DNA of 64,000 nt, from the NCBI GenBank assembly GCA_963575645.1, contig OY754470.1:43493201-43557200 (forward strand), in the 5' to 3' direction. The number at the start of each line of letters is the position of its first letter. Positions within the stretch are counted from its first letter, which is position 1. Below the pieces are notes generated by a model that was given only the letters and a program-made list of their open reading frames with translations, did no database searches and was not told where the DNA came from. The translations under genes and the position numbers were made by a program. Shown piece by piece: positions 38,901 through 64,000 of this stretch. The DNA is from Xanthostigma xanthostigma. Its lineage: Eukaryota > Arthropoda > Insecta > Raphidioptera > Raphidiidae.

Positions 38901-41900
38901 CTTATTTCAACCTTTTATTTCTTTGTAGTAAATTGAAATTTAAAATATAAAAGTTCTATCTGAGATTTGACATAAATCGATACGACATCTTGTGATAGAA
39001 ATTTAAACCACAAACACATTGCAGTTTACATAATTGCAGACACACTATTAGTATTACTATATATTTGACATTACATTTGGTCTAAGCTCCGCCCATATGT
39101 TATAATTAATTCTTCGTTCAGATCACTTCGCTTTTAGAAAACCTAGCACACGTTCTAAAATTAAAGAGATATTTTAAGAAAGTCGAAGAATGTTTTCATA
39201 CTAATTAAAGAATGAAAAGTTAATTTTGTTTCTTCAAAATTCTTCGATATATGAAATAAATAATATGTAGTTTTGTGGAACAGTTTTGTAGCTGGAGTAA
39301 TACAGTGGTCGAAAATACCGCCGTTTGAACGTATGTTGTGGCGGGCATGTCGAGGAAATGTATTTCTCCGTCAAGCTGAAATCGAAACACCATTTGAAGA
39401 TCCGTCTACGGTAAAATATCTAATTTCAACAAGTCCGTTTTAAGTGTTTTATTGGTGCAGTTCTCATCTGGTTCTTTCGGTTCTAAAACGATTATTGACA
39501 CTGCTCCTCGGAAGGTTGCAACTGCATGTTTGTTAGTAAAATTCTCGAACTGTATGAAGTTGGTTTTAGCAGTTTCAAAGAAGTAGCACTTCAGAACTGA
39601 CAAATGAATGCGTATTTAAAACGTTGTTTTGGCAACAGCACAATACGCACACATTCGTTACCGAGTTTAAAGGGTATGTTCCGAAATATAACCCAGTATA
39701 CTGGCCAGTGCTAAAGTCGTCATGACTCCGACACTATAATTGTACTGGTGAGACAGATATGACGTAGCATAAATATTTAAGCGGACGTGAGTGCATTAGA
39801 CTTTGCGGAATTTTTTATTTTATTATTTTTTTTTTTTTATTTTAAAAACAAAATAAGCGAATCAGCAACTAAGGCCATTATCGCATAAACAAATACATAA
39901 TATGGAAAGTATAAATATTAAATAAGTAACATATTTTATTATTTGTTATTTGCAATAATGTCTGCTCAACAAAGTAGGTAAACATTTGCTTTTGGTGGAC
40001 GAGGGAAATAATAATACGTCAACGCACTGGCCAGTATATTTCGGAACGAATCAACAGTATGGCGTCGATTCATGACGTCATTACTGGTATTTTTCGGATC
40101 ACACCCTTAATTAACCTGTTGGAAAACATATTTCTAAATGCAACGAACACTTTCGATTGGTTGGATTATCCGAAGAGTTTTAAAACGATTCTAGAACTTG
40201 ACCAATAATGAACCTAATTTTTAAAAAATCTGAATTTATTTGCAAGAATCGGGATGTCATTAAAATTTTATGGTCGTGTCGACCCAATGACTTAGATATG
40301 CCAATTTGCCAATAATCCTCTGAGTTTATCAATTGGTCTACGATATAATTTCTTTTTATTTTTAAATCATATTGAGATGATTGAATTTTTTTTAGAGAGA
40401 TCGCATATTCAAATCTGTGTTCATTATATTCTTCCAAGGCGATCAGTTGAAGACTCGCGTTATGAAAATATGTGAAGGTTTTCACGCAACTTTATATCCG
40501 TGTCCGGAAGCTCCTACCGATCGTCGAGAAATGGCTATGGGCGTTATGACTCGTATTGAAGACTTGAATACTGTACGTTTGCATTCGCGGGTGAACCGAA
40601 AACCTTGAAACATAACCTTAACAAAAAATAACATCTTTCCGTTTAGGTTTTAGCACAAACTCAAGATCATCGTCATCGTGTGTTGCTCGCCACAGCAAAA
40701 AACATTAATAATTGGTTCGTAAAAGTACGCAAGATCAAAGCGATTTATCACACTCTGAATCTGTTCAATTTTGACGTAACTAAAAAATGTCTCATTGCTG
40801 AATGTTGGGTGCCTGCGCTGGATCTTGATTTAATTCAACTGGCGTTGCGACGCGGAACGGTCCGTTATTTCAACTTTTTTATTCGCTAGGATTCCAAGCT
40901 CTCTGCGAGCGGTCATGCGCAGTAGCTACAACGAAACTGTTTTGTATTGGTTTTGTGCGCATGCGTCGACTTTGCACTATTTTGTGGCTTAAACCGTTAT
41001 AATTTCGGTTGGAACACGTTTTAGCTACTGCGCCTGACTGACAATAATATTAATGTGTAATAGTTCTTTTACTTCCCACCCTACTATGGTTGCGGAGAAT
41101 TGCATTCAAGTTAATAAGAAAATTCGCAGGTTTGTGGACAAGTCTATAAATTTAGACTTTTTCAAGTACAGATTGAAAATTATTTAAAACAATAATTATT
41201 GTTTTAAATAATTTTCAATTTGTACTTGAAAAAGTCTAAATTTATAGACGAAACGTCGTACAATCATAAATACAACTATTGTCCACAAACCTGCGAATTT
41301 TCTTATTAATTATTATCGATGGACACGATATCTTATATATATTGCATTCAAGGTGTTAAATATAAAAAAAATCTTTTTGTTTTTTCTAAGATACATAGAG
41401 ATTTGACAAAAAAATGTTTTCCGGGAAATTATTTTTTATTCTCTGAAATTTTACCTTCAGGAGAGAAGTGGCAGCACTGTCCCGCCAATTTTAAACCGAA
41501 TGGAGACTTTTGAGGATCCTCCGACTTACAACCGCACAAACAAGTTCACGTCCGGTTTTCAAGCACTGATCGACGCTTACGGCGTGGCCAGTTATCGCGA
41601 GGTCAATCCGGCTCCTTACACCATTATCACTTTTCCGTTCTTATTTGCCGTTATGTTCGGTGACGTGGGTCATGGACTCATCATGTTTTTATTTGCTGGA
41701 TGGATGGTACTTAAAGAGAAACCCCTGGCTGCCAAAAGAATTGACAGTGAGGTAGGCGAAATCAAAAATATTATTTCTATTTTTAATGTGTCAACTAGAG
41801 TGCCCACAAGATAAATTTGTAAAGCTAAGAACTTATTCATAAGTCAAGAAAGTATTGGAAAAGTCAAGAAATATTAATCATGAGCAGCGGAAACAGAAGA

Positions 41901-44900
41901 GATAACAGATTATTATTTATTTTCACGTTGGCAGAAGTTCAGGGAAACTTTTTTGTATCTTGGAAATTTGAAAGAGTATATATTTATAAGAAATTTGTGT
42001 GTAGCAGGGGCTCAACTTTACTGCTCGGGAAGATAAGATTCCGACCCCGTCAACACGAATAGTATTTTTCCACCCTGTGCAAAGTGAGCGTTTGACACCC
42101 CACATTCGAAGCAATAAAGAATTATAACTTGCGGTTGTGAGATTTATCACAACAAAGGCAAGAAAAGTATTATTATTTTTACCTTAAAATTATATCTACA
42201 TTAACCAATATCTTAGATCTTACAAAGTAAAAATCAAATAATTCAGTAAACAAAAAAGATATGAACTTATACAGACGATCGGCCTCCGAGGTCCTCAGCC
42301 TACCGGGAAAACTCTCAAAATCCCCGCAAGCCTATCTGCCTCTGGTGTGTAGTATTTGTACAAACGATTCATTTATTCAAATTCAGAACAATTGCGTATT
42401 GTTTTTTTAGATCTGGAAAATCTTCTTTAACGGTCGTTATATTATTTTCCTTATGGGTCTTTTCTCATTATATACTGGATTTATTTATAATGACGTATTT
42501 TCAAAATCACTAAATTTATTCGGATCTTATTGGAAAAATAGTTACGATGAAAAATTTATGATGACGCATAAATCTGGCCAGTTTAATCCAGCCGACCGTA
42601 ATTTTTATATTGGACATCCGTATCCGATTGGTCTTGATCCGGTTTGGCAGGTACCTACTGTAAAATAGCATTTATCATTCAAATTCTTATCGCTTTAACG
42701 TTTTTCGATCGATTCTGTTTTAGCTAGCGGAAAATAAAATCATTTTCCAAAATGCGTACAAAATGAAAATTTCTATTATATTTGGAGTAATACACATGTT
42801 ATTTGGGGTCACTCTCAGCCTTTGGAATCATGTGTAAGTACAGTCAGTTCTTCATTTAATTATTCCTACAATTCGGAGAACTATTATAACTTTAGCTACC
42901 CCTGTCAGTCTTTCAGAGAGAATAAACATCTAGTACTTTTTAAATTAATGTTCTTTTTATCAATCTAGATATTTCAAGAAACAGGTCAGCATCGTTTGCG
43001 AATTTATTCCGCAGATAATTTTTCTGTCATTCCTGTTTCTTTACATGGTGTTGTTAATGTTTCTTAAATGGATGATTTATTACCCGACAGACGATCGTAT
43101 GTTAATCTTATCTTTCATTATTTCCTTTGAACGTACATTAATAACCCACTCGCACTCAAGCGCAGCAGTGCCTCATAACTAACATCAATACAAATTAATC
43201 AACTTGTGACTATACTTTGTTACTTTCAGATGATAAAGCAAGACATTAGGCACTTTCGATTGACATTTTTTTTAAATTTATTTGCAATATTTTATTATCA
43301 AATATTCCAGACGCGAATTTTCAGGCTTATATCTCAATTATTTTTGAAGATAACCTCATCATAGTCTATATGTCGTAAATAGGATGAAATTTTCTACAAG
43401 ATCGCTATAGATTATTGTTTATATCTTACAAAATTTTAGAGATAAATGCAATTTATTTATCAAAAATAATTGAGACATACCTGGCGAGTCAATACTGGAA
43501 TCCCCTTGTATAATTTCGACGCATGCGCAATATTTCATATCATATGTTGTTAACACGTGTTTCTGTTGGATGATATACAACTCGAACTGACCGTATAGTG
43601 TATCGTCGAAAATTATTTTCGTATCTGAATATTGTTATTTGACGAATGTGTGAATTTTTAGCGAATGAGACTAAAAACAGCCCGTACTGTGCGCCCTCCA
43701 TTTTGATCACTTTCATTAACATGGTGTTGTTTAAACCGAGTACTGCATTTGTCGGTTGCGATATATACATGTATGCAAATCAAGGTTTCATCCAAAAAGT
43801 GTTGGTCATTTTGGCATTATTATGTGTACCTTGGATGCTGTTTGCAAAGCCATTTTATATAATAAACAACGAACGGAAAACGGACCAATCGGTTAGTATC
43901 CTTGTCAGTCATGACTTCTAGGTATCATATCGGTTCCATAGTTATGGTTACTTTTGACAAGCACTCCATTGCTCTGTTCCAGCCTCTCTGCGAATGGTAA
44001 TATTATCGTCACAGTGTTGCGTAGTAGCTAAAACAAAACTGTATCGGTTTTGTTCGCATGCGTCGACTTTGCACTGTTTTGCGGCTTTAAAGGACAGTTC
44101 TAGAACCGTTCTAATCACGGTTGGAACACATTTTCGCTACTGCGCATGACTGTGACGATAATATTACCGTTCGCAGAGAGGTTGGAACAGAGTTCATATC
44201 TACTGCTCCAATTGAAGTGAAGTTGGAACTGTCAAAAATATTGAAAACTGAGAATTGGATATTATGTTTTGTGATAATAATAAAATTGATGCAATTTATT
44301 AATCAAGACGCTAGTGTGTCTTGTCGGGCGTCTATAATCTATAATGAATATAATAAATTATGATATTGCTCAGATGTCGCTCCGACAAATGTACGGTGAA
44401 ATAGATATGGATGAGGATGAGGATGACTACCCTGATCTGCATTTCCATAAGATAGAGGCTCCTCCCAATGCACCGCCACCACATCCACCAGGTGGTCACG
44501 GCGAAGAGCATGACGTCAGTGAAATGTTTATTCATCAGGGTATTCATACCATCGAATACGTACTAGGTTCTGTGTCGCACACCGCGTCTTATTTAAGATT
44601 ATGGGCGTTATCGTTAGCGCATGCACGTAAGTTGACATTTTTTTAAGAAATAGCTCGTTTATCTTAATGCAGACTTTCGTGGCCAACGTTCCAAATCTTC
44701 TTGGTTTCCGGGCATGTAGGCTGTGGTCCATTGGGATTTCTACCTGGAATTTCGTGTACAACTACGGCAGACACTTTCAAACACGGTGTGGAAGGTTTCT
44801 CCTCGGCGGCTCACAAAGTGTGTCGATGACTGGTGTTATTCCTTCTTTTATGCTTCCTTCATGTTTTGCATTGAAAAAGAGAGAACACCAGTCTTCAACA

Positions 44901-46859: not shown

Positions 46860-49800
46860 ATGGCAGAGCCAAAAAAAGTTTGTATCGTGGGATCAGGAAA
46901 TTGGTACGTATTTATTTTGTTACATAATAATTTTGCTTTATTTTTTTTTTAAATGACCTACAGAATTTTGTGTAATAAAATAATTATCATCAATTATTTC
47001 TATGTATTTTGGCCAAGGTCAAATAGTTTGCAATATTTAATTAATAATTATCAACACGTTTTAAAGTAATTCAGGTATTGCGCAAGAAAGGTTATGTAAT
47101 TTCTTTTTCGTTTAAAGATGTCAAAAACTAGCAAAGTTACGCGTATTATTAACTGTGCTGTGCCTTAATTAATATTTTATTTGTTAGGGGCTCGGCTATA
47201 GCTAAAATTGTTGGTTACAATGCTGGTCGTTTACCAATATTTGACGACTGTGTCACAATGTATGTTTATGAAGAATTGATAAATGGAAAAAAGTTAACTG
47301 AAATTATTAATGAAACTCACGAAAATGTTAAATATTTACCGGGCCACAAGTTACCACCAAATGTGGTAAGTTTAAATTTTATTTGATAAATTAATAGGTA
47401 ATGGTATACGTTTTAAAATTGCCCGATTTACCGGATCAGTTCCGTAAAACTATTTTTTAAATAAGTTGCTGTCGACAGAGGCGACAAAAATTGTTGCAAT
47501 GTATTTATTATATTCTGAGCTTTTTTATGTAACCTTTTTAAATAATTCCAATGATCATATAAAATATTTTTAATAGGTTGCAGTACCAGACGTTGTGGAA
47601 GCCGCAAAGGACGCAGATATTTTAATTTTTGTAGTACCCCATCAATTTATCCGCCCATTGTGTTCAACTTTATTGGGAAAAATTAAACCAACCGCGCTTG
47701 GCCTTTCTTTGATCAAGGTAAGACAGTTCAGAGTCTAAAATTCTAATATAGTTAACCTTTGGATTAGAGATTATGCTTACATTGCATGATTCATCTAAAA
47801 ATGTGCACTATTAACTTTTGATTTTGATATTTCGGTATCTTATACTGTATCATTGTTTTTGTACTGATACAAAAAAATATAATATTATTAGCGGTCCCGC
47901 CCGTTTTCACCCGGGTGCAAAAGAACGAATGGAGGGGAGGGACATGAGTACGCACGTTCAACTTCGTTTACCGAGATGAATGTTGTGTACAAATTTCACG
48001 ATGATCGGAGTTACCGTTCAAAAGTTTTTATTGGACGGACAAATTTTGAGTTAAATTTTGCAACATGTTTCATTGATGCTCCGCCCCTATTGGTCGTAGC
48101 GTGATATTATATAGCATATAGCCTTCCTCGATAAATGGGCTATCCAAAAAAAAAATTTCAATTCGAACCAGTTTCCTGAGATTAGCGCGTTCAAACAAAC
48201 AAACATAAAGTCTTCAGCTTTATATTATGTTAGTATAGATACCATAAATTTTGCTTCCAGTCGCGATGTTTAGATTCGTCCTGATTCGCGTAGTTCAATG
48301 TCGATTTTAACGGAAACCCTATCATCCCTCGAATGTACTAAAAATTACGCTGTAGGTACCATACTTTCGGGTTATTGATGGCATGCGAAGTTTTATTAAA
48401 ATTCTTGTAATTGTTTTCAACAGTATAATAGTAGACAAACAAGAATAGTGAAAATGCATTCTCCCGTTCAAGTGCAATGTTCCTAAATTTCATTTTTAAA
48501 TTATCTTTAAATCAAGTTTAAATAACTATAAAAAATGCAGACCAAAGGTTAATTTTATAATTTTGTTTATAATTTGTACTTGTTATTTGAAACGTTGAAC
48601 TTTGAATTATGCTAATTTTAATAAGTATATGCCAGTGACACTCAACCTTTTTATGCATGAGGTCATAACTGCTACCAAACCCAAAATTAGTAGAACAGAT
48701 GTTGTCTCGTTCCGTTTGGAAGGGAGAAGAGGGTATTAAACCGTGAGATAAAAGTTTGGCTGAGGAACAATTTAAAATGAAGCTTTACCGAAATTGAAAT
48801 ACAATTTTTAATACGAATATATGATGATTGAATATGCAATTCTTCAACAAGTTTTTTTTCTATCTGATGAATTGTTCTATCTAATCCTCAGATAGAAAAC
48901 TAACTTGCCGTACTTACTAGATTTAAAAAAATAATAATTTTTCGATAACAATCGAAGTTCTATTAAAGATGTTGCAGTTGTTGATCGCGTCGCGATTGAC
49001 GGTATGGGCACCCCTTGGTACACGTGGTTATTAAATCTAGTTATAAATAAGTTAAAATATATCATTTATTTCTTGTATGTAGCAAAACTTGCATTCACTT
49101 TATAGATCTAAAAAAAAATTGAAATAAACTTTCCATATTATTTGTAACAAAAAGAAGTAGGTATTATAAATTAACATTCAGGGTCATGACATTCATTTAC
49201 ATGTTTTTAAGATAGGAAATGATTTAAATGAATCGACTGCAATTACAGTTACTATGCGTCTTTCAGTTATATATAAATTTTTTACCATCCTATATAACAG
49301 GGCTGCCCAACCTATTAGTAGGAGCGATCTACTTTTTTTTTAAATAATGTCATCGCGATCTACCAATATGCGGGAAAAAAATAAAAATCGCTTTTATAAC
49401 GTTGCAAATATAGAAAGTTTATTAAACATTTAAATGGGAACAAAAATTATACAATATTGAGTATAGTCATATAAAAAAATAAAGAATCAAAATTAGAAAT
49501 ATAGTGAAGTAATTTAAATGAGATCGCTGACAGTGTCCAGATTTGGCAATATTTCAAAGGCTTTGGAATCCAATTTGAATAAAAATTTCACTATACTTCG
49601 ATTTAGTTTGAAAATTGAATTTTTGGATATTAGAATAGATAAAGTATAAAGATCTACTTAAAATAGTTAAAATTACGCCGCGATCGACCGGTAGATCGCG
49701 ATCGACTGGTTGGACACCCCTGCTATATAACGAATCCTTCAGTGGCGTAGCTTCAATTTTTCACCCAGCAATTTATTAATCCAATTTATTATGGCTTTTT

Positions 49801-52800
49801 GAATTAAAGTTGCTATTTTTCGATATGTTAAAAAAACGCTACGCGCCATGATGGTTTACAGTGTGACGTCAGACTTGTAGTAAACACACATACCTATATA
49901 AAAACACTAAATGAGCCTCGTGTATACAATACCGAGTTCTTATTAGCGTTATTTTGTATACTACAAAAATGACGTCACTGTAGGTTAACATGGCGGCCCG
50001 TGTTTTCGCGCCAACTTATATATTTAAAATTTTGAGTGCTATTTTATCCCATAAACCAATTACATTTAAGCGAAATAAAAATTTCTGTGGACTAATATAC
50101 TACAATTTGAACCAGAGCTGTAACAAACCGTATGTATTCGTTACTGAGTAACGGGTACATCGTCTGACTCGAAGTAACGAATCGTTATCTACAAATTCAT
50201 TTCGTTACTCGTATCTGTCGTATCCATCTCAGCAGCGTGTCAGTTCGACTCGTTTGATGCGCTTATACGTTATACGAACGAAGTCATACCCGTATCACAC
50301 ATATGTGACCGGCGACGCGCGATGGTAGGTACATGCTTGATGCTGTTGCCTGTTGGTACATGATTGTATGTCGTATGAAAAGTAACGAGTAACGTAGCGA
50401 TACGAAAGTAACGGGTATTGGTTCTTTAAGTAACGAATACATACGGGTACACAATTTTTCGTTACTTTTACAGCTCTAATTTGAACATTCTAAGATAATT
50501 TAAGAATAAAAATCAGATAGTCTATTGTGAATAAGTTACATTCATCGAATCATTAATTTTGGTGAAATTTTATCATGAATTACGTTATTTTTAGGGCTTC
50601 GACAAAGCGGAAGGCGGTGGTATCGATTTGATTTCTCATATTATTAACCGTAATTTGAGAATACGCTGTGCAGTGTTGATGGGTGCAAATCTCGCCGGGG
50701 AAGTAGCCGATGAAAAGTTCTGCGAAACAACGATCGGCTGTCGAGACAAGAGGTTTGCTCCGATGTTGAGAGATCTCATTCAGACGGACTATTTCCGTGT
50801 TGTCGTGGTCGACGATGAGGATGCGGTCGAAGTGTGCGGCGCGCTTAAGGTATTTTTTAATTGTATTTTTATGATTTTCAATTTTATTTTGCGCTTTAAA
50901 AGTTATAAGCTTTTTTGCTAGTTACGTTCAATGCTAGCAAACATTCTCGGTTTATAATGGACATAAACTTTTTCCGGAAAGAAAACTGATACTGGTTGTA
51001 GACCCTTGTTAAATATAATTCCCTCAATTTTCTCTTCATGAATCCCCACCACACAAATTTCGCGGCTCATCCTTGTTTTTTTTTTTTTTTTTTTTTTAAT
51101 TGGGCTGGAGCTACTTTTTTTTTAGTTTACTTTGTAAATAAGTAGACTTCTCTGTATGAACGATTTTTGGCTAAACGTCGTTCTTAAGGAACTTACAGAA
51201 ACGTTTTCAATTCATTTCTTATGTTGTTCATGAAGGCATTTCGAAAATTTGTTGTAATATCACTTTTTGTATTTGGAGTAATTTTGGCAGCACATAATTA
51301 CTATACAGTATGTAAACGCGTAAGGTGCACATAGGGAAATTAGCATTGGGAAAAAATACTTGGATCAGAGTTATGACTGCATTAATTATAATGGTAATCT
51401 TGAGGTTTTCTATTTTATTTTGATTTATTTTTATTTTACTTGGCTTTTTTAATAATAGAAAGCTTTTATAAATCATTATTTTAATTTTCTTGTACAAAAA
51501 TAAAACAAAAAAACAACTCCATCTGTTTGGAAACATTTCATTCAAAAATTGTCTGACTGGTATGACGTATGCGCGTTGGTAAATCAGTGACCCAATGTCT
51601 TTAGGTTCAACACGAATAGGCGGAGATATTTGATCTAGCGCCATATTTAAGTATTTTTGGGAATTTTATGTCCCATTAATAAAAAAAGTCCAATTATGTT
51701 GAAATCATTTGAATATTTTCTTCGGTAGTATACACATTCATTTTGCAAAAGGATATTATCTGCCAAATTGAAAAACAAGATTTCAAAGCTCACTCTGATC
51801 CAGTCATTTTTTCCCAATGTTAATTTCTCTATGTGCACCTTACGTGTTTACATACTGTATATCAAGACATAACCTAAAATGTAAAAAAAAAATGTTTTCT
51901 GACTGATTATCGTTTATAGACAGTGAACAACTTAGATCATGAACGTTTGAAAATATGTTTACGTTCATTGTGAACCGAGTGTAAATATTGTTTTCATCTA
52001 TCTCACATTAATTGAATTATTATTGTTTGTTATTGAGTTACTGTTTGGAATTATTCGAGTTTTATTAAAAAACTCGAATTATTCGGACAGATGTAGCGTT
52101 TATTTGAACATTTGTTTTTATATTTTTCTGCACTTTATTTTTGTTTTACTACAGAACATCGTAGCATGTGGTGCTGGTTTCGTAGATGGTTTGGGTCTTG
52201 GTGACAACACAAAAGCAGCTGTAATTCGTCTTGGTTTGATGGAAATTATCAAATTTGTCGATGTTTTTTACCCCAACAGCAAACTGAGCACATTCTTTGA
52301 AAGCTGCGGCGTTGCCGACCTAATCACGACATGTTACGGTGGCCGTAATAGGAAAGTTAGTGAGGCTTTTGTTAAAACTGGAAAAAGTATCAAACAGCTC
52401 GAAGACGAAATGCTTAACGGACAAAAACTGCAGGGACCATTCACCGCCGAAGAAGTCAATTTTATGTTGAAAAATAAAAACATGGAAGACAGGTATGTTT
52501 TATTTTGTTTTTATCCCACCCACTACACCATAGCCTCTTTCTAATTTGCTTTACTTATAAAACAGTTGCAATCTAAAACAAAAGTTTCCTATGATTGCAA
52601 TACTTAATAGAACATATATTAATAATATCAGGAATGTGGACTAGACAAGATGGTAAATAATAATCACTTTATTATTTCTGCAACGTTTCGGTCTTTATTA
52701 GACCTTCCTCAGGCATCTGAAAAAATTACATATGTACTTAACCTCTACATTAGCACAATAATTATTACAATTCAATATTTATTATTAGACCTTCCTCAGG

Positions 52801-53691
52801 CATCTGAAAAAATTACATATGTACTTAACCTCTACATTAGCACAATACAGAAATAATAAAGTGATTATTATTTACCATCTTATCTAGTCCACATTCCTGA
52901 TATTATTAATATATATTTATAATTATAGATGATAATAACAACAACTGAATAGAACGTTATTATTTGTTGAATTTTGCGTAAATGTATAAGTTCTGTTCCA
53001 ACCTCTCTGCGAACGGTAATATTATAGTTCCAGTCTTGCGCAGTAGCTCAAAAATCCATACAAACAGTTTAGTTTTAGCTACTGCGCAAGACTAATAGGT
53101 TTGTTCCAAGCAGCCGCGAACGGTTACAGAACCGTACACAGTCTTGTCACTGTGCAAGACTGTCTTGCGCACTAGCTCAAACATCGATGCTGCGCAAGAC
53201 AGTCTTGCGCAGTAGCAAGACTGTGTACGGTTCTGTTACCGCTCGCGGCTGCTTGGAACAAACTTAATATCACCGTTCGCAGAGAGGTTAGAATAGAGCT
53301 CTAGTTGGCGGTTTTTTATTAGTACAATTCTTGATGGTGTCGGGGATCCTTTTATGTTAGTGCCGAAGTTACAAAAATTTACGTAAATTATGGAATTCCA
53401 AAGATCCTTTAAAAATATAAAAAATTCAGAATCGAATATGATATAACCTCAAAACATTTTGACAGCTGATCAGGGATTAGAACAAGTGTCACTTCTGAAA
53501 CACATTTTGCGACATTTCTTAAATCTTAGCGGGGATGTACCAAAAATACATTTATTTAGCAGCAAAAATATTTCCACGAAACAATTTGTTACAGATTTCC
53601 AATGTTCACGTCGATTCACAAAATCTGCATTGGAGAATTGAAACCTACCGACTTTATCAACTGCATCCGCAATCATCCGGAACACATGTAA
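46860..53691 (+). CDS. Gpdh: Glycerol-3-phosphate dehydrogenase [NAD+], cytosolic
   Basis: Interconverts dihydroxyacetone phosphate and glycerol-3-phosphate with NADH; works in the glycerophosphate shuttle and lipid synthesis. Exons: 46860-46903, 47188-47365, 47577-47717, 50595-50849, 52155-52492, 53595-53691, joining in frame to 350 aa. The Rossmann GxGxxG is at residues 11-16 (VGSGNWGSA). The lysine of SLIKGFD (Lys121) and Lys206-Asn207 ([12 protein letters not shown]) match the catalytic lysines of human GPD1 (Lys120, Lys204). [11 protein letters not shown] holds the phosphate-binding arginine. The protein ends HPEHM. The stop TAA overlaps a good donor (CACAT|GTAAGC, intron from 53688), so splicing can replace the stop with another C-terminus, as Gpdh isoforms in Drosophila also differ by C-terminal splicing. 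Introns 3 to 5 carry several MITEs. Confidence 0.97.
47890..48240 (+). repeat. Non-LTR retroelement-like 3' end or SINE
   Basis: Begins near GCGGTCCCGCCCGTTTTCAC, contains TCACGATGATCGGAGTTACC and CTGAGATTAGCGCGTTCAAA, and ends CTTCAGCTTTATATTATGTT then AGTATAGAT. This closing string is typical of RTE-type elements and their SINE partners in insects. No open frame. In intron 3 of Gpdh. Confidence 0.5.
49298..49722. repeat. hAT-type MITE (CAGGGCTGCCCAACC)
   Basis: Ends CAGGGCTGCCCAACC and GGTTGGACACCCCTG with a perfect 8-bp duplication CTATATAA (49290-49297, 49723-49730). In intron 3 of Gpdh. Confidence 0.85.
49812..50062. repeat. MITE-like repeat, pair of 6006-6330
   Basis: Contains GTGACGTCAGACTTGTAGTA and ATGGCGGCCCGTGTTTTCGC. 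This copy lacks the nested palindrome. Confidence 0.55.
50113..50478. repeat. hAT-type MITE (TAGAGCTGTAA), copy 2
   Basis: CAGAGCTGTAACAAACC at the left and TTTTACAGCTCTA at the right, with a perfect 8-bp duplication ATTTGAAC (50105-50112, 50479-50486). Inverted relative to 31755-32133 and similar to it over most of its length. Confidence 0.85.
51303..51861. repeat. Tc1/mariner-like nonautonomous element
   Basis: ATACAGTATGTAAACGCGTA at the left and TACGTGTTTACATACTGTAT at the right. Terminal repeats are ~70 bases, continuing through GGTGCACATAGGGAAATTAG and TTGGATCAGAG with mismatches. TA flanks fit a Tc1-like insertion. No transposase remnant recognised. In intron 4 of Gpdh. Confidence 0.65.
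52614..52914. repeat. Fold-back MITE with an internal direct repeat
   Basis: The outer arms, near ATAATATCAGGAATGTGG and its complement, extend inward through AAATAATAATCACTTTATTA. Inside, a ~65-base unit (ATTAGACCTTCCTCAGGCAT...) is present twice in direct orientation. In intron 5 of Gpdh. Confidence 0.65.
52990..53300. repeat. GTTCCAACC palindromic MITE, copy D, with a nested palindrome
   Basis: Outer ends TTCTGTTCCAACCTCTCTGC and GCAGAGAGGTTAGAATAGAG. Nested at about 53098-53269 is a second palindrome with ends TTTGTTCCAAGCAGCCGCGA and its complement. The nested element resembles its host family, which suggests insertion of a relative. Confidence 0.65.
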
Positions 53692-56451
53692 GCGCTGTTA
53701 ATGTACCTGATTTTGAAACAATATCTGTGGTGTTCTTTTATTTTTTACCTTAGATCCATAGAATATAGTTCCGATAGAAATTGCACGTTTCATTGATTTC
53801 GTAGACGAGTTAAATGTTAAACTGACCTTTACCTTGGACCCTTAGGAACCATGGATGTCTTGCGCTTGTATAACGAAATATACAGCATCAGGGCAAGACT
53901 TCTTGTATGCATTATGCGAATATATATGTTATTTATGTTTGAAATTGAGATGTTTATTTGTTTTTTTCGGAAATGTGATTCTTGCGGCATGTCGAATATA
54001 TTTATGTATATTTTTGTTTACCAAAAACACTGTAATAATTAGACTCGTGACGTCAATGAAATAGAAGCTGGTTGATTGTAATTTTGACACACAAAGATTC
54101 TAAAATCTAAAATAATTTTTGAGGCTAACAAAAGTCAGCCAATATCTGCTACATTGACGTGAGTTCTTACAGTATTTTTTTTTTAACTTGATATGATACT
54201 CATTTTAGATTCCCGTTTACCTTCTTGATTGAAACGTGCAATTATAAATATAAAAGCGTTCATTCAAAATAATTATTCATCATAAAAAATTAAGTATCAA
54301 AAGTGTACAAACGAAGATTTCGGAAATAACTTTCATAATGCTACTTAAAAATCCTTAACTTCTTAGCGAGCGCTTATAAATTCCTCTCAGCTAATTTTTT
54401 ATAAAAAGTGTTTTATTTTTGTACCGAATAATGAAACATCAATGCATATTTTACTCATTTCTATTGTATCGAGCGACATGCAAAAGGAAAATTGCGCCTG
54501 GCGTTTCTCTAGAGCCGGGGCCTACACATAGAACCCGGTTGTGTTCTTCAAATGTGAATAATTTTTCATCTGCTAAACAGATGCTTGTAAACAAATATTT
54601 CTTTTTTTTTAATTCTTACGACTAGATATTATTATCTATTTTTGCTCTGTTTGGCAGTTGGGGAAATGATTGATGTAACACAAAAATACTTTTTTCAAAA
54701 ACTCCATTTTTTTATTTTATGCTCGAATATTTTCATGCATCATTTCTGCAACAAACTTCTATTATTATTTTTTTTCATTTGTTTGCAATACTTTTAAAAA
54801 TGCTTTTATTGATTTTTGGTGCAAATTTCTCAAGTAAGTCTAAAGGTGTAATGGAATCAAATCGTATTGATTCTTTTCATGCCAAGCGATTCTGCACAAA
54901 CCACATAAATATCTGTGTTGGTGTAACAGATTTATGTAAAATAATGTTATTTCATTATGCGCCACTGTTTTTGAATCAGAAACAAGTCAAAATTTGCGAT
55001 TCAATTTTTCTTTTGTTTATAGTGACATGTTAAGCAGAATGTAAGATAGTGTAGGTAGCAATTGTTTTAATAAGTGAAAATAATACCTATCGACTTACTC
55101 TGAGAAATCTACACTTCTAGATAGATCCCTTGATTAATTAAATGTAGGTTAGAATAGTTCATTTGGTGCTAAATTTAATTATGTGTTCAATCACTATAAA
55201 AGTACATAATTAGAGTAAACTATTTTTATGGCAGGTTTTAAAATATTTGAATAATGATGGTCCATCGCTGTCTGCGATTATTATATCACTAATTTGAAAG
55301 AAATGCAGTTATATTCACTGATTTCAATTACTATTAACTGGATTTAATAATTTTGTTGGGATTTTACCTGAAGGCGAACCCTATTTCAAAATATTCAGTA
55401 TGGCCGCCCTATGCGAAACGTTTTCATTGACAGTATATGAAGTTTAGATGTTTTGTTTCAAATGAATATTTCTGCAGAAAAAAAATGTTGTTGGGGTGAT
55501 AGTAATCCTTTGAAACGTAATTATATTCAGAGGAAAAAATCACATCAGAAAATGTGATAGAATCGTTAATACAGGCTGTAGTGATGAGGTTAACTTTGTT
55601 GCTTTCTGCACGTAAACGTCAAATTTGAAACAAATCGCATGAAATCAACCGTGTATAATCAGCTGACAGCTGTCACTTTTCAATTTAATAATTTTATATC
55701 AACATTTACACTTGATCTACTAGCATAATTAGGTACTGTACAACGCATAACATGCTTCTTCTTCGATTTTCCAATGACTTGTGTAGCTTCCGTTATTGTT
55801 AACAATAAATATTTACAAAAATACGTAGCGCGCAATGCTTTACTCATGAGACGCTTCGCATAGGATAGTTCACTGGAACGCCGAATAGATGACGCAGTCT
55901 CAGCTGTGCCGAATTGAAAACTAAATGGTGCAAGAGATACCTAATGCGCTTGCGCAATGCATTACCATATTGCAGTATTGCGGCAGCGTGTGGCCGTGAG
56001 AGGCAGCACGTGTAGGTGCGTCGAGTTCAGCCTCTCGCGACTTAAACAACCCACATCGCGAACGGCGAAAGATCATTAATATTACAATTTTTTTACGAAT
56101 ATTAATAATAATTAATGCAAACAGTGACTTTTTAATATTGGCGTAACAATGCAATGAAACCTATATAAAACGGAACGTCACCCAGGCAAAATAATTTCGT
56201 TTTAGACAAAAAAGAATCGTTTCAAAAGAGGTCTGTTTAATGTTGTAACAGTTTAATATTCTTGTTGACAATTATAAACTTATTTTATTGTTTCATAGTT
56301 TTTTACAAAGAATAATCAACTTCTGTTAATAATCTACCAACTGATTAATTTGTTTAATATATAATATTGTAACATGAGTATTCTTTAATTCAACACTTCA
56401 TCATACGTCCCGCTGCCATCTTGCATTTGTTGTCTCCCCACCACCGCCAGG

Positions 56452-56860
56452 GTAAGATAATATATAAGAAGGTATTCCAATCCTGCAATGCATCATGGGA
56501 AATGTGTCAAGCGGTGGCGCCACCACGAGTGTGTCAGATACACTAGCCATCCAATCCTGCAATGCATCATGGGAAATGTGTCAAGCGGTCGCGCTAAAGA
56601 TACACTAGCCAGTAACTAAAGTATTTTCATCCTAACTCTTGAAATAATAATAAATATTGTTTATTATTAATTAGCGCCTAAAAAATCTAAAAAATTTTTT
56701 AGGCTAGTGTATCTTTAGCGCGACCGCTTGACACATTTCCCATGATGCATTGCAGGATTGGATGGCTAGTGTATCTGACACACTCGTGGTGGCGCCACCG
56801 CTTGACACATTTCCCATGATGCATTGCAGGATTGGAATACCTTCTTATATATTATCTTAC
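56452..56860. repeat. 409-bp palindrome with duplicated units in each arm
   Basis: Arms of about 160 bases (56452-56611 and ~56703-56860) appear perfectly complementary around a ~90-base AT-rich centre. Ends GTAAGATAATATATAAGAAG and complement, flanked by GCCAGG on both sides (56446-56451, 56861-56866; the match can be read as 10 bp). Each arm carries twice the unit CCAATCCTGCAATGCATCAT plus GGGAAATGTGTCAAGCGGT. No coding capacity. Confidence 0.8.
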
Positions 56861-58236
56861 GCCAGGGTAACACCAGTGGCGGCGTGGCTTTTAAGGCGTG
56901 GCGTTACAATGTAAACTTTTACAATATAATTTAATATTTTCGCCATCACAATATGCTTCAATTTAGATAATAGATACTGGCATTGTGTAAGGGGGCCAAA
57001 AAATATTTTATTGAAGACTGCATTATAGATGTGTATCAAGATTCTGTTATGGGTTTCACTGTAGTTGATACAACGTATTTTAAGAGCATTTATTTGTTAA
57101 AATGATGACACTTATTTCAGATAAATGTTAAATTTTAGTTAGGGAAAGTGCAATCATAATAATTAAGCCCTAATTTTAATGACTTTCCAGAAGTTACGTA
57201 TTGCGTTCCCGTAAAATCATGACTCGCTGAACGCGAAAACTGCTTTTATCCGTGTCAACAGTAGATTTTTATACTGTTCTGGTTGCATTTACGTGTACAA
57301 ATGATTTTTTCACTATATTAACGTTTAGACTTTAGATACTCGTAGAATTAATGGGGATAATAAGCTCCAAGCTGGAAATGGACCCTGCCATTGTTTTGAT
57401 GGAATCTTTTGATTTGTTGAAATTGAAAATGTTTTTGCAGAGATTTCGTGTCCGATTACGTAAAATTGTCTTCATAGACATTTGGCAAACGCTGCTATAT
57501 TATTAGTGTTGTATTGTTTTGTTTCTTTTTTTTATTGCAACTCTACTTGCCTAGGAAGAGTGGATTTCAAAACCTTGCGTATATCGGGCTCTAAACATCT
57601 GCTTTTAGGCCTGGCATGATCTTATGGGATTCGTTCTATAGTTTTATATTTAATATTGGTATTTATCTAACCTCCAAACTAGAATAAAAGTCCCTTTTTA
57701 TTAAATTAGTGTGTAATCAAATAACGGTCAAATATGGTGACATGGTATATTATAGTAATATCAATTGCTACTTGGTCATAAATATCGTCTAAATTATGGT
57801 ATAGGACGCGGAGTAATTTAGTTTAAGCTATGGAAGATATGTACCTAAAGTTAAAATATTTTTTTACAAACAAATATTTTCAAACATAGATTCGTCATCA
57901 CAGAGATCCCCAGATGTGTAACCATTTCTACAAACAAATCAGCTGTTGTTTCTAAATACATTCTTACATATAATAAGAATGTTAACCCCCTTTATTTCTG
58001 TGAGCGGATAGAAAATCGAAAATTCTGTTTCGTTAGGTTCTGTTTCATGCCCTATACTACAAGTATGCAAAGGTGAAACTTTCAAGGTTAACCGAGACCT
58101 TCTGGAGAGTGTAGAAAGACAAACATTCGGACAGACAGCCACTCATTGGGAAATTATATATTTTCCCTCGTTTTTCTATGACATAATATTACGGATCTGA
58201 TACTCCGATAAAATATCGTCAACTCGAGTTCTAAAT

Positions 58237-58500
58237 CAGGGGTGTCAGACTGATTTTTCTAAAGGGCCATTTATAAGATTTAGGGTGTGTAAAAAACTAA
58301 AACATACTAAATTAAAATCTTTATTTATTTAGTTTTTCATATAAAAGGGTAAATTATCTTGAGCTTGAGAATCCAGCAATTTTAAAAATACGTAGTGCCA
58401 TCGAATGCCGTCTAAAATCCTCACTGGATAGATTCTGGTCACATATTGAGATGGCTTGAAGGCTGGATGCGGCCCGCGGACCGTATCTTTGACATTGCTG
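58237..58500. repeat. hAT-type MITE (CAGGGGTGTCAGA)
   Basis: Starts CAGGGGTGTCAGAC and ends TTTGACATTGCTG, with a perfect 8-bp duplication TTCTAAAT (58229-58236, 58501-58508). The interior has GCGGCCCGCGGACCG, as in the related element at 30365. Confidence 0.85.
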
Positions 58501-59110
58501 TTCTAAATCGTATTTGGTGACCAGTGAATGACTGAAATTTGGGAAACCTTACTGTAGAATTTTTATCTTAAACTAACAAAAATTTTGAATAGTAATACGT
58601 TTAAAATCATAGCACGATAGATTAAAATTAGTTCATTGGGTTGGATACTAATAGTGGTAGTTTTAGGTTAATCATTCTTAAGCAGGCTAATAAAACGAAA
58701 CTTTGAATTTATATAGACGAAGCAACTGATCCAAAGATTTTAGTTGTAATATGAACTGTTTTGTTTGGTTTTTATAAATTTTCATTTATATTATTAAGAA
58801 AAGACGTTTGTGCCATGAAAAACAGTAAAGCTGTGAACTGTTATTATTATTGTTATTGTTACTATAAATTTATTATATAAGATCCAAATTTATGCCAAAT
58901 TGTTAAACATTATTTTTTTTATGTTATGAAAGTAAGACAAATTTATATATTCAGACCTAGTCTTTTTGAAAGATATGCTCAATTGTTTGAAAATTTAATG
59001 TTACATAATATATATAAGATGTAATTAATATACAGGTGAATAATTTAAAACAAAACACGTAACGTCACACATTCAAATAATTAGAAAAGATGATTTTACA
59101 TCTATTTTTA

Positions 59111-59225
59111 CAGGCAGTGAAACTTAAATCATTGTTGTTAGGCAACAGACGTAAGTTTAGCGAAAAACTTTTTGAATTATGTCTGTTACCTAGCAACACA
59201 ATAATTAAAATTTCATTACCTGCGT
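59111..59225. repeat. Imperfect inverted repeat
   Basis: CAGGCAGTGAAACTTAAATC...TTGTTAGGCAACAGACGTAA pairs with TTATGTCTGTTACCTAGCAA...ATTTCATTACCTGC. A diverged small MITE. Confidence 0.45.
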
Positions 59226-59780
59226 GAAAATGGGTGTAAGAGGATCTTCTGTGTTCTATTTCTAATCAGGAAACTTGACGAAAATGGTAATAACGATAGT
59301 GTCACATCATCATAATAAGGATCTAAAAAAGAAAATGGAGAACACAAGAGTATGTAGACAGCCATTTTCATCCGGCTTTCCGAGCTCCAGAATTTTAACC
59401 TTTGAAGTAGCATAAATTTATTATTTTTAAAAATATTACAAAAATTCTTTTGCCAGAAATTTTGAAATTTTTAGGACTATGATTAATAGTTAAAAAAAAT
59501 GAGAAACTTCCCAGTTATTCGAATACGTGATCTTGCATGCTTCGTTTTAAATACACCCTGTATTTATTATGAGCAGCGCTTTTTCAATCTTGATTGTAGC
59601 GCGATACATTTGAACTATCGAATCAGACGTGATCTACGACCTCATTGGCGCATATTAATGAATCTGTGCTCTTTTGAATTGGCCAATCAGATGAACTTCA
59701 AAATTATACGTTACAACAACGCTCATAGAACTCACATTAATAATTTTGCTTGCGTTGTGTAAAATTCCGTACTAATGAAT

Positions 59781-59824
59781 TGTAAATTATAGACTCTCAA
59801 CAACTAAAGGTCATCAGCGTCTAT
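59781..59824 (-). repeat. Short AGACGCT palindrome family, inverted copy
   Basis: TGTAAATTATAGACTCTCAA then CAACTAAAGGTCATCAGCGT and CTA: same unit as 4791, opposite strand. Confidence 0.5.
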
Positions 59825-60315
59825 GTAAAATTTTGTTATGAACACTTATGACTTATTGATCCATAACGGAACATGACCGTCAACGGTTTGACAGTATCAC
59901 AGACAATATCGGGACCTTAATACAGTAAAATAACTCGCGATACGCAGTTTGAGAAGCGCTGAACGGAGGTGTAAATTTTTAAAGTAATCTATGTCAACAG
60001 AACTAACCTTACAGTAAATCAAATTATATTAGAATACGGATATTCGTAGTAATGTACTATTTCACGTGCAGTTTTAGCATTATATAAATGTGCCTTAATC
60101 GTTAATTTTTTAATACTAACAGACTATTATGAATCCAAAACCCGTTTCATTGTTTTATTTTTTACTGCAAACTTGTTAATTGCCTTTTTTTGAAGTGAAA
60201 CTTCTACATTGAACCAATGAAACGATAGATAAATAGAGTACAGCTTGACAAGTATATGACGCGTTTGATTGACACTGCCATCTATGTTTGGATTGGCAAA
60301 ATAGTCAAGAAGTTA

Positions 60316-60748
60316 CAGACTCGATAATTCGAACTATGTAATTAAAACACAATTGATCCGGACTATAAAAAAATCTAGATTACTACGAGTAATGCTTACA
60401 AAACAATAGAAAAAGCGTTTCTAAAGGAGTTGTTTATACAAATAAATAATAAATATGTTTTAGAACTTCAGTAAGCTTCTGTATAAAATATTCAAACATA
60501 AACAAGCTATTAAATATTATTAAAATACAGATTATATTGATGCATAAACTCTGTAATTTTAGTTTGATTAATATTTGGAACTGCTTTTTTTAATTGCCCA
60601 AGAATTACAGTCATTCTATCACTATTTAAAAACAATAGTCCGGATTACTGAAACTGCAGAAATCCGGATTGCAAAGTACATACAGTCAAGCAACAGTGTC
60701 CGAAACACCAAAGAGTACTAACTATCAAATTTCGGATTATCGAGTCTG
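60316..60748. repeat. pogo/Tigger-like MITE
   Basis: Ends CAGACTCGATAATTCGAACT and TTTCGGATTATCGAGTCTG, TA on both sides (60314-60315, 60749-60750). Inner TCCGGATTACTG and ATCCGGATTG repeats resemble the ends of pogo-like elements. No transposase. Confidence 0.65.
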
Positions 60749-61536
60749 TACTGTATGAATGTAAGTTCTAAAATTCGGGCGTTTTTAGTGTTGTTAAAAT
60801 GGTTATGGATTCGTGATTGTCATTTTTTTCCATTTCTTAACATCGTTGCATTTCTAAAATAGTTTAGTGTATTTTTGTTTTCAAATTAAAAAAAATATAA
60901 ATATACATAAAAACTATTTCACGAACGTTGCTATTTTCAGGTATTACGTCCGGCAAATATCCATATATTAATTCTGACCATATGATTAACAAGTTCCCCT
61001 ATCAAGACCTTTTCCTGTACAAATAAATTTCTTTAAAAATAGCTAATACCATGTTAATGAACACATTTGGTAACAGCTGTATAAATTTTTATGTGAATCT
61101 TGAGGGTAATGCATTATATTTTTTTAAAGTCACTCGGTCACATTTTTAGGAAGAACATAAAAACTGTAAAAACTATTTTTTACATTACATTGATCTTGAT
61201 ACAATATATTGTTCTAACGGATCGATAATGATAGTTTTTCTCTCCTAGCAACTTTATTTTGAATACTTCTACAGAACATATTTTCATGTTTTGTTTTTCT
61301 TCAAAAAATTACTTAACTACCTTCAAATAAAGATATTTATGCAACATTACTCAAAGGATAAAAATATGTGTATCCCTATCATATTTCTAATACATTTTCT
61401 CACAATAATAAACATTTTATCATTGGTTTTGCAAATAAAAACATGCGCTGCTTCCGCTGTGGGAGCCTTTATAATATTCTTAGCATATTTTCATGATTAA
61501 GCAATGTGCGGTAACAACGTGTGCTTTTTGTTTTAG

Positions 61537-61570
61537 GAGCACTGGCGACTCTTCCCGATCTAAACTCTAA
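61537..61570 (+). CDS. Gpdh: Candidate alternative terminal exon of Gpdh with a PTS1 (SKL) end
   Basis: Preceded by an excellent acceptor (gctttttgttttag). If joined to the donor inside the Gpdh stop (..CAC AT|G), the frame reads Met350 then STGDSSRSKL and a TAA stop, giving 360 aa. Ser-Lys-Leu at the extreme C-terminus is the archetypal type 1 peroxisomal targeting signal, and the small, polar, basic residues before it (DSSR) suit PTS1 function. Phase, acceptor and signal are seen in sequence. That the exon is used by Gpdh, 7.8 kb upstream on the same strand with no intervening gene, is inference. Chance cannot be excluded for so short an exon. Confidence 0.6.
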
Positions 61571-62218
61571 TACACCATCATTTATTCCAATTTCCAGTAC
61601 AAAGAAGAAACCATTTTTAACATAATTAATTTACATGAGATATGATTTGAAAATCAGATTTCTCAAAGCCAAAAACAAAATTCCTTAAATCATATTTAGC
61701 TATATTTTTATACATTACTGCATTATGTTTAATAGTCCAGTCGGCAGACGTTTTTTTTCTACAATGGAATACAAAAGCTATTCTATGATTGCGATTTGTT
61801 AGTGGGTCGGTTTTGAGTATAAAAGCAAATTGGCGCGTCAGCTGTTTTCTTGACAAACACGTTTTAAAAAATATCTCTAAAACGATTGAACCTACGAAGA
61901 AAACACAAGGGACCTTTTTTGTAGAAAAATCAATGATTAGTCATTTGTAATCACAACATTTTTTCGTAAAATCAATATTTTAAGAGGTATTGTGCTGCAA
62001 GGTTTTCATTTTTCACTATACGAATTATTTAGCAAAAACTGAAAGGGGAAAACTTTTCAGCGCAATAACTCTTAAAATAATGAGTTTACAGAAAAAACGC
62101 TTCATATATAAAAAATAGATAATTAGTTTTTCTACTAAAAAGGTTGTTTGTGTTTGTCTGTATAATCAACTTACTGTTCTCGAGATAATCGTAAAAATGC
62201 GTTTATCAAGATAATAGT

Positions 62219-62431
62219 CATATACTTAATACTCCTATATTACTAGTACGGATCTGGAAAAGTGTGACCTCAAATGTTATGCGCATGTCCGAGAATGGAG
62301 CATGCACTTGCCCACTACAGTCACAACACTTATAACGAATTGAGTGAGATAGAAGTATGCAGTTGCTGTCTCTCTTGATGGACAACACTTCCACTTACGG
62401 GGGCTAGCAATATAGGAGTATTAAGTATATG
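62219..62431. repeat. MITE with CATATACTTAATACTCCTATATT ends
   Basis: The left CATATACTTAATACTCCTAT and the right ATAGGAGTATTAAGTATATG are perfect inverted repeats. 213 bp. It lies between the two candidate terminal exons of Gpdh. Confidence 0.65.
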
Positions 62432-62948
62432 TGGGTAGCAGTGTAGTCCCTCTCGCCGCTCCTATACTTGTTTTTTATACTCAGGATCGATCCACTAACA
62501 AATTCCGATTACAAAATTCCTGTTGTATTTTATTGCATTTTGGACCCTTGTTTTTCGATCTGCCGCCTGGGCTATAAGTATACTTATTTGTATAAAATAA
62601 TAGTATTGTAGGTTATAATAACATTTTTTTACAGTTTTTTTATTTGCATGGTTTTGCTTTAGTTGGCTGTGACAATTTAACTGTGCCATTTCCTTAACCG
62701 CTTTTGGAATCATTATTAATTTAGTCTATAAAATTATGGACATATTTGTGATTTCAAGCAATAAATTTTGTGGTTCGTAAATAGGATTTCTTAGACGCAA
62801 AAAGAAATACATGGATTGCTTGAAATTATTTAAGTGTAATGGTAAATTAAATTGACTAATTTTGATGTACTTATAATAATTGTTTAATACAAATACAATA
62901 CGTTAAGAAAATTGCGTTTTCATTTACCAATGTTTGCATGATTTTCAG

Positions 62949-62982
62949 GAGAGTTTACGAAGTTCCCCCAGATGATGCGTAA
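62949..62982 (+). CDS. Gpdh: Second candidate alternative terminal exon of Gpdh
   Basis: Acceptor gcatgattttcag. Joined in the same phase as the SKL exon, it reads Met350 then RVYEVPPDDA and TAA, again ten extra residues (360 aa) and again 34 bases to the stop. It would give a cytosolic isoform with an acidic, proline-containing tail. The matching phase and identical tail length are the only links to Gpdh. It could instead be an exon of an unseen gene, or chance. Confidence 0.4.
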
Positions 62983-64000
62983 AATAGACTGTCATTTGTC
63001 AGTTCCGTCATCACATTACTGTCATCTATGATCCTGAATCAACATTTTATGTAGTCAAGTATCGTTTTGTGGACGTATTTTTATTTTTCGTTGGCAAAAA
63101 ATACAATTTATATTAAATTATAGCAACTTATTTATTGTTTTAAATGAATTTTCGACTATGTTTTATAAAATAGTCAAAAATGACTTGTAAATATCCATGT
63201 ACAGTTGTTATCAAATATAAGAATACTTTAGTTTTCATTTTTGCGTTTTTATTTCGATTTTTTGCGTTTATTTTCATTTCTTTCAGTTTATCTTTGTTCG
63301 GGCAAGACGACACGAGACAATGTCTATTAATTAAGATCAATTCGTTTCAGCTATTGAAAGAGAAAAAAAATCGTAGACTGCTGTATTGGGAAGAAATGGG
63401 CAAGGTACTGGAGGCAGCCGTGTCTTTTTACAGATTTCGAGTTTTGACGGGAAACTTTAACTGATTTCCAGTAGTGCAGAAGGTACCTCCATTCTTTATT
63501 AACTTGCTATTTAGTGTCTTTTACACCATTTCGAGACTCTGGACAAACTAACAATTCAGAATACTTTTGCCGCGTTCATCTCACGTTAGCGTAGAGCTAG
63601 TGTTTGATATTGCTCACCTTTTTACCATTCCAACCAGTGGTGTTGTCGAGCCGGAACGTCGTTCCGGTACTTCCTTTTTGGACAGGAACGCGTTCCGGAA
63701 CTAAAGATGATTTCTGATAACGAGAATTCCAAACAATGAAAAAAATAATGTAAATCTTACTTTAGGATTTTATTAACGTAATTTGTTTTTTTTTTCTCAA
63801 ATCGACATAACAATTGAAAAAATTTGTAACAATGTGCCAACAAATAGAAAAATTCCAAACAATGAAAAAAATAATGTTAATGTATTTCAGTTACAGTTTT
63901 TTATCTCTTTTCACCCCCCCCCGTCGTCAAATTTGGGACATGAGACCGCACAGAGCGGCCGCCTACCCAGGATCGGCCCTGTCTATATAATTATATATAG
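62983..64000. other. Downstream region with transposon remnants
   Basis: No gene recognised; the 94-codon frame at 63180-63464 has a hydrophobic low-complexity start and no known motif. Around 63640-63700, GAGCCGGAACGTCGTTCCGG is repeat-like. The window's end (about 63930-63990: ACCGCACAGAGCGGCCGCCT, then CCCAGGATCGGCCCTG) resembles the end of a hAT-type MITE continuing past the window. Confidence 0.35.

What the first reader, a model, noticed from the sequence alone, without database searches (positions are those of the whole stretch)
53685..61570. Gpdh stop codon overlaps a splice donor that can lead to an exon ending in Ser-Lys-Leu (peroxisomal isoform)
The last Gpdh codons are CAC ATG TAA GCG, and the sequence CACAT|GTAAGC is a good phase-2 donor. 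At 61537, after a strong acceptor, a 34-base frame continues ATG-STGDSSRSKL-stop. One gene could thus make a cytosolic enzyme (350 aa, HPEHM) and a peroxisome-directed one (360 aa, PTS1). The donor destroys the stop, so the choice is binary. Drosophila is known to vary Gpdh C-termini by splicing; an SKL version in this insect would put glycerol-3-phosphate production next to peroxisomal ether-lipid synthesis and NAD redox balance.
Basis: partly seen in the sequence, partly recalled or inferred. Interest (0 to 1): 0.75.

Follow-up and report, generated by a model that had tools for sequence, protein, structure and literature searches.

The report
Insect Gpdh with possible peroxisomal tail
An insect gene for a glycerol-phosphate enzyme ends at a stop codon that is also a usable splice site, and a small exon about 8,000 bases downstream could replace the ending with a classic "send me to the peroxisome" tag; the sequence supports this, but no RNA or related insect was available to prove that the exon is used.

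Summary
[quoted passage not shown] Its CAC-ATG-TAA-G end contains a donor, CACAT|GTAAGC; joined to 61537 it gives 360 aa ending HPEHM-STGDSSRSKL. The acceptor scores higher than four of the five other Gpdh acceptors; it is a TAG-GAG tandem and both AGs keep SKL. Among 16 acceptors at least this strong in 53691-64000, it alone leads to a strict PTS1; shuffles give one in 47 of 3000, but real neighbouring sequence suggests about 7% by chance. A divergent Gpdh paralogue also has a donor over its stop. An AGPS-like gene of this genome ends YSSKL. No RNA evidence or insect relative could be obtained, so use of the exon is inferred. Best reading: an alternative terminal exon giving a peroxisomal isoform, most likely for peroxisomal NADH reoxidation. 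It is a new member of a known kind: splice-derived PTS1s are described for fungal GAPDH and predicted for fly Nurf-38, and a variant PTS1 is noted for fly Gpdh1.

The parts
46860..46903 (+). Gpdh coding exon 1 ([15 protein letters not shown]...)
47188..47365 (+). Gpdh exon 2
47577..47717 (+). Gpdh exon 3
50595..50849 (+). Gpdh exon 4
52155..52492 (+). Gpdh exon 5
53595..53691 (+). Gpdh exon 6, short form, ending HPEHM-TAA; in the long form it would end at 53687
   Evidence: Pfam NAD_Gly3P_dh_N and _C on the 360-aa spliced protein
53688..53693 (+). candidate donor GTAAGC, overlapping the stop codon 53689-53691
   Evidence: score 3.73; 8 of 562 GTs in 53.7-64 kb as good
61510..61536 (+). candidate acceptor: possible branch point GGTAAC (by eye), T-rich tract, TAG
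   Evidence: score 3.38
61537..61570 (+). candidate alternative terminal coding exon, (M)STGDSSRSKL-TAA, canonical PTS1

Best explanation
The gene makes two C-termini. If the end of exon 6 is left unspliced, translation stops at TAA 53689-53691 and gives the 350-aa cytosolic enzyme. If CACAT|GTAAGC is spliced over 7,849 bases to 61537, the stop is removed, Met350 is rebuilt, and ten residues STGDSSRSKL are added. Their terminal SKL, preceded by Arg, would be bound by Pex5 and carry the folded enzyme into peroxisomes. There it would most likely oxidise NADH from beta-oxidation by reducing DHAP to G3P (a redox shuttle), or supply DHAP in the reverse direction. Shown: the reading frames, splice-site quality, uniqueness of the exon, and an SKL ending on an AGPS-like protein of this genome. 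Inferred: use of the junction, import, and metabolic role.
For: Exact frame and Met restoration. Acceptor in the range of the other Gpdh acceptors. Both AGs of the TAG-GAG tandem keep SKL. The only one of 16 comparably strong acceptors leading to a strict PTS1; 47 of 3000 shuffles. No PKCS ending and no QNL ending with a good acceptor over 40 kb. The paralogue at C7:13.45 Mb also ends PEHM with CATAT|GTAAGT over its stop. An AGPS-like protein of the same genome ends YSSKL, and in flies PTS2 import is absent and AGPS behaves as C-terminally targeted (PMC7477296, passages), so PTS1 would be the expected route if this insect is like the fly. Literature precedents.
Against: No transcript, protein or cross-species evidence; the viral and prokaryote collections gave no insect relative. 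15 of 462 AGs between the stop and the window end score higher as acceptors. The donor over the stop is largely a by-product of Met-TAA-G. Sequence about 11 kb downstream of the paralogue also yields an SKL frame after a strong acceptor (IVPTAHALLLLFCRFSKL), which looks like chance and shows that such frames occur. No AATAAA lies within 1.1 kb after the SKL stop (first at 62760; a TATAAA at 61818); the short form fares no better (first AATAAA at 55804). The lepidopteran GPDH tail that I saw in print, PKCS, is not a PTS1, and zebrafish Gpd1 is reported to have no PTS (PMC9604208; PMC8919083; passages).
Confidence: 0.6

Rival explanations
1. Chance: the gene ends at TAA 53691, the donor look-alike is a by-product of ATG-TAA-G, and the SKL frame is intergenic coincidence.
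For: 462 AGs lie between the stop and the window end; the real-sequence background predicts about 0.07 such hits in the region; no expression data.
Against: Low probability on both backgrounds (47 of 3000 shuffles, about 7% empirically); frame, Met restoration and tandem acceptor fit; GC of the 30 coding bases is 53% against a local mean of 32%, reached by 5.4% of local 30-base windows.
Confidence: 0.27
2. The donor is used, but for a different terminal exon (a muscle-type tail, another short tail or a UTR-only exon), and SKL at 61537 is incidental.
For: Insect GPDH isoforms with other tails are reported (PMC9604208, passages); 47 of 1828 AGs over 40 kb score higher as acceptors than 61537, e.g. 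59114 (MQ) and 63686 (MNAFRN).
Against: No PKCS ending, and only two QNL frames, with poor acceptors (-0.8 and -5.9).
Confidence: 0.08
3. The SKL exon is real and used, but SKL does not direct import in this context (masked C-terminus, or retained for another interaction such as myofibril anchoring).
For: In Drosophila a C-terminal tripeptide (QNL) places GPDH-1 on myofibrils (PMC9604208, passage); accessibility of the tail was not tested.
Against: SKL is the canonical PTS1; a ten-residue polar tail should be exposed (inference).
Confidence: 0.05

Closest known systems
Drosophila melanogaster Gpdh1 C-terminal isoforms
   Same: Same enzyme family; a variant PTS1 at the C-terminus is noted, with peroxisomal trafficking unconfirmed (PMC7477296, passages); QNL on GPDH-1 is needed for myofibril localisation (PMC9604208, passage). 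Recalled and unverified: a fly isoform with ten residues after HPEHM ending PKL.
   Different: Here the tail is canonical SKL; no QNL frame with a good acceptor was found. Expression not shown.
Drosophila Nurf-38 (inorganic pyrophosphatase)
   Same: Alternative splicing is reported to generate a C-terminal PTS1 on a metabolic enzyme in an insect, with peroxisomal targeting called predicted (PMC4207609, passages).
   Different: Different enzyme; I did not see the splice layout.
Fungal GAPDH/PGK cryptic peroxisomal targeting
   Same: Alternative splicing or read-through gives peroxisomal forms of carbohydrate enzymes, linked to NAD balance for GAPDH (PMC9549241 and PMC3798809, passages).
   Different: Fungi, other enzymes, partly read-through.
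Saccharomyces Gpd1 peroxisomal shuttle
   Same: Same reaction, dual cytosol/peroxisome location, NADH reoxidation (PMC7829553 and PMC9549241, passages).
   Different: Uses a PTS2 and phosphorylation control; flies lack PTS2 import (PMC7477296).
Kinetoplastid/diplonemid glycosomal glycerol-3-phosphate dehydrogenase
   Same: Same enzyme activity, inferred glycosomal from a PTS1, except that no PTS was detected in bodonid data (PMC9512073, passage).
   Different: Not splice-switched in the passage seen; distant lineage, specialised organelle.
Mammalian LDHB and MDH1 read-through isoforms
   Same: Peroxisomal forms of NAD-dehydrogenases through a hidden PTS1 (PMC4207609, PMC9549241, passages).
   Different: Stop-codon read-through rather than splicing.

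Membership tests
[quoted passage not shown]
   (E 6e-45 and 3.1e-44); residues 4-350 match a solved cytoplasmic GPDH, 1x0v, E 9.6e-151
Splice-derived PTS1 isoforms | Sequence allows a splice that removes the stop and appends an in-frame PTS1 | tested here: met
   360 aa ending RSKL, at the level of sequence only
Splice-derived PTS1 isoforms | The alternative transcript exists | not testable with these tools
   no RNA data available
Splice-derived PTS1 isoforms | Conservation of the PTS1 exon in relatives | tested here: inconclusive
   four prokaryote relatives only, none in viral contigs; the in-genome paralogue keeps the donor, but no resembling exon was seen among the candidates listed
Splice-derived PTS1 isoforms | Tail directs import into peroxisomes | not testable with these tools
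   needs a reporter assay; an SKL ending is present on an AGPS-like protein of this genome
Drosophila GPDH-1 muscle isoform | C-terminal QNL | tested here: not met
   over 40 kb only two overlapping weak-acceptor frames end QNL, 20 kb downstream

The most novel reading that the evidence does not exclude
A canonical, splice-switched PTS1 on animal cytosolic GPDH: a dedicated exon that sends the same enzyme to peroxisomes, filling in an insect the role that a PTS2 fills for yeast Gpd1, and possibly an old feature of insect Gpdh of which the fly variant tail is a derived remnant.
Probability: 0.35. Interest if true: 0.7.

Novelty: new member of a known kind. Interest (0 to 1): 0.48.

Why it matters
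How mammalian GPD1 enters peroxisomes is described as unclear (PMC7829553, passage), and trafficking of fly Gpdh1 to peroxisomes as unconfirmed (PMC7477296, passage). A splice-controlled SKL tail would give a clean genetic handle: one junction to block or force, with a predicted effect on peroxisomal NADH, beta-oxidation and ether lipids.

Tried and rejected
Relatives: GPDH searches of viral contigs (8 stretches matched a pattern, none confirmed) and genome contigs (179 stretches, 4 prokaryote loci at 28-30% identity) gave nothing usable for the exon. Competing tails QNL and PKCS: not found with a good acceptor. Other genes between 53.7 and 64 kb: 3 of 36 stop-to-stop ORFs of 55 aa or more were scanned against Pfam and did not match; the other 33 were not scanned. 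No Rfam match at gathering score in 46-64 kb. Repeat origin of the exon: 61300-61800 has two partial matches elsewhere, at about 61728-61788, outside the exon. Insect order: the genome is an insect's, with 78 matches to the odorant-receptor family 7tm_6 and 111 to the cuticle family Chitin_bind_4, 0 of 14 control genomes ringing for either (that these families mark insects and arthropods is recalled). Telomere repeats did not place the order: four tandem TTAGG once, TCAGG none (one match to the reversed control), TTAGGGATGG none. GNPAT C-terminus: a GNPAT-like gene was seen on C8 (name from recalled motifs) but its last exon was not identified. Structure prediction was not run: the spliced protein is a join of exons, and a single-sequence model would say little about a ten-residue tail. 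A recalled Drosophila tail was searched as text without success.

Full report
Observation. The window lies on contig C7 of a 623-Mb, 28-contig genome. No organism is named; 78 matches to the odorant-receptor family 7tm_6 and 111 to the cuticle family Chitin_bind_4, with 0 of 14 control genomes ringing for either, mark it as an insect (the taxonomic meaning of these families is recalled). Gpdh is complete on the + strand. Exons 46860-46903, 47188-47365, 47577-47717, 50595-50849, 52155-52492 and 53595-53687, followed by GTAA, read 350 aa ending NHPEHM and stop; joined instead to 61537-61570 they read 360 aa ending HPEHMSTGDSSRSKL and stop. The protein has both Pfam NAD_Gly3P_dh domains, and residues 4-350 match the solved cytoplasmic GPDH 1x0v (human GPD1, recalled).

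Splice sites. The donor CAT|GTAAGC scores 3.73; the five other Gpdh donors score 2.32, 6.03, 6.16, 0.74 and 6.18, and 8 of 562 GTs in 53.7-64 kb reach the candidate. It must be discounted, because Met-TAA already supplies ATGTAA and only the next G adds to it. The acceptor at 61537 scores 3.38 against 2.33, 1.01, 2.16, 4.43 and 1.90 for the five other Gpdh acceptors and 0.85, 3.49, 4.16, 0.95 and 2.07 for those of the paralogue. These scores use approximate tables recalled from memory. The acceptor is TAG-GAG; use of the second AG would give HPEH-ITGDSSRSKL, again SKL, though that AG scores poorly (-1.5).

Chance. Of 462 AGs between the stop and the window end 15 have a better acceptor score; over 40 kb (1828 AGs) 47 do. 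Ten of the 1828 lead to a lenient PTS1 ([SAC][KRH][LM]), two of them the tandem AGs of this exon; the next best acceptor among the ten scores 2.0. In 3000 dinucleotide shuffles of 53691-64000, 47 contained a strict PTS1 after an acceptor at least this strong and 15 an SKL; the real region has 16 such acceptors against a shuffle mean of 8.6, so the true chance is perhaps twice as large. An earlier run of 300 shuffles gave 0.19 SKL frames per region after any AG, so the SKL frame alone would be unremarkable. In 111 kb of real sequence read on both strands there are 233 such acceptors and two strict PTS1 hits: this one, and one about 11 kb downstream of the Gpdh paralogue whose tail is hydrophobic and does not restore Met. 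That gives about 0.07 expected by chance in the region.

Context. A divergent paralogue lies 30 Mb away on the same contig (C7:13.445-13.451 Mb; five exon matches, 42-57% identical). Its last exon ends SPEHM, and CATAT|GTAAGT again places a donor over the stop. This fits a long-standing alternative C-terminal splice but is not proof. A gene with the FAD-oxidase_C domain on C4, which I take for AGPS from recalled resemblance (other genes with this domain lie on C3), ends LYSSKL, and a GNPAT-like gene is present on C8. So an SKL ending on an ether-lipid enzyme exists here. In flies PTS2 import is absent and AGPS behaves as a C-terminally targeted protein (PMC7477296, passages).

Mechanism. Most likely, retention of the exon 6 end gives cytosolic Gpdh, and splicing to 61537 gives a Pex5 cargo. 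The best-supported role is reoxidation of peroxisomal NADH through DHAP and G3P, as described for yeast Gpd1 (PMC7829553 and PMC9549241, passages). Ether-lipid synthesis starts from DHAP (own knowledge), so the enzyme could also feed it in reverse; it would not help it by making G3P. These steps are inference.

Comparison and novelty. Splice-derived peroxisomal isoforms are described for fungal GAPDH (PMC3798809, PMC9549241, passages) and a splice-derived PTS1 for Drosophila Nurf-38, with targeting called predicted (PMC4207609, passages). A variant PTS1 on fly Gpdh1 and its unconfirmed trafficking are in print (PMC7477296, passage). One moth study reports QNL only in Drosophila and a PKCS tail in four lepidopterans (PMC9604208, passage). 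Ten searches of the paper library showed me no SKL isoform of an insect GPDH; I saw listings and, for nine papers, passages only. Subscription papers, supplements and sequence databases were not covered, so an annotated isoform may already exist in RefSeq. I rate it a new member of a known kind.

Limits. No RNA, no related insect genome and no localisation data were available. Confidence that the exon is real and targets peroxisomes is 0.6.

Noticed in passing
window 28252-33293 and 41500-44646, + strand: Exons of the V-ATPase 116-kDa subunit a (V_ATPase_I in 4 of 4 ORFs scanned) occur in two copies upstream of Gpdh, nearly identical over one shared exon.
   Followed up: partly
window 23095-24213, + strand: An open 372-aa transposase frame (HTH_Tnp_Tc3_2, DUF4817).
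   Followed up: no
window 56452-56860: Inverted repeat with 159-nt arms, 100% complementary, 91 nt apart, inside the candidate Gpdh intron; perhaps a young foldback element.
   Followed up: no
G000 C7:13444801-13451900 (L019): Divergent Gpdh paralogue ending SPEHM whose stop also overlaps a donor (CATAT|GTAAGT).
   Followed up: partly
G000 C4:37532788-37533786 (L025): AGPS-like protein ends LYSSKL, i.e. carries a C-terminal PTS1, in line with what is reported for flies.
   Followed up: yes
G000, whole genome: Four-unit TTAGG occurs once, TCAGG and TTAGGGATGG repeats not at all: telomere repeats are unassembled or of another type.
   Followed up: no
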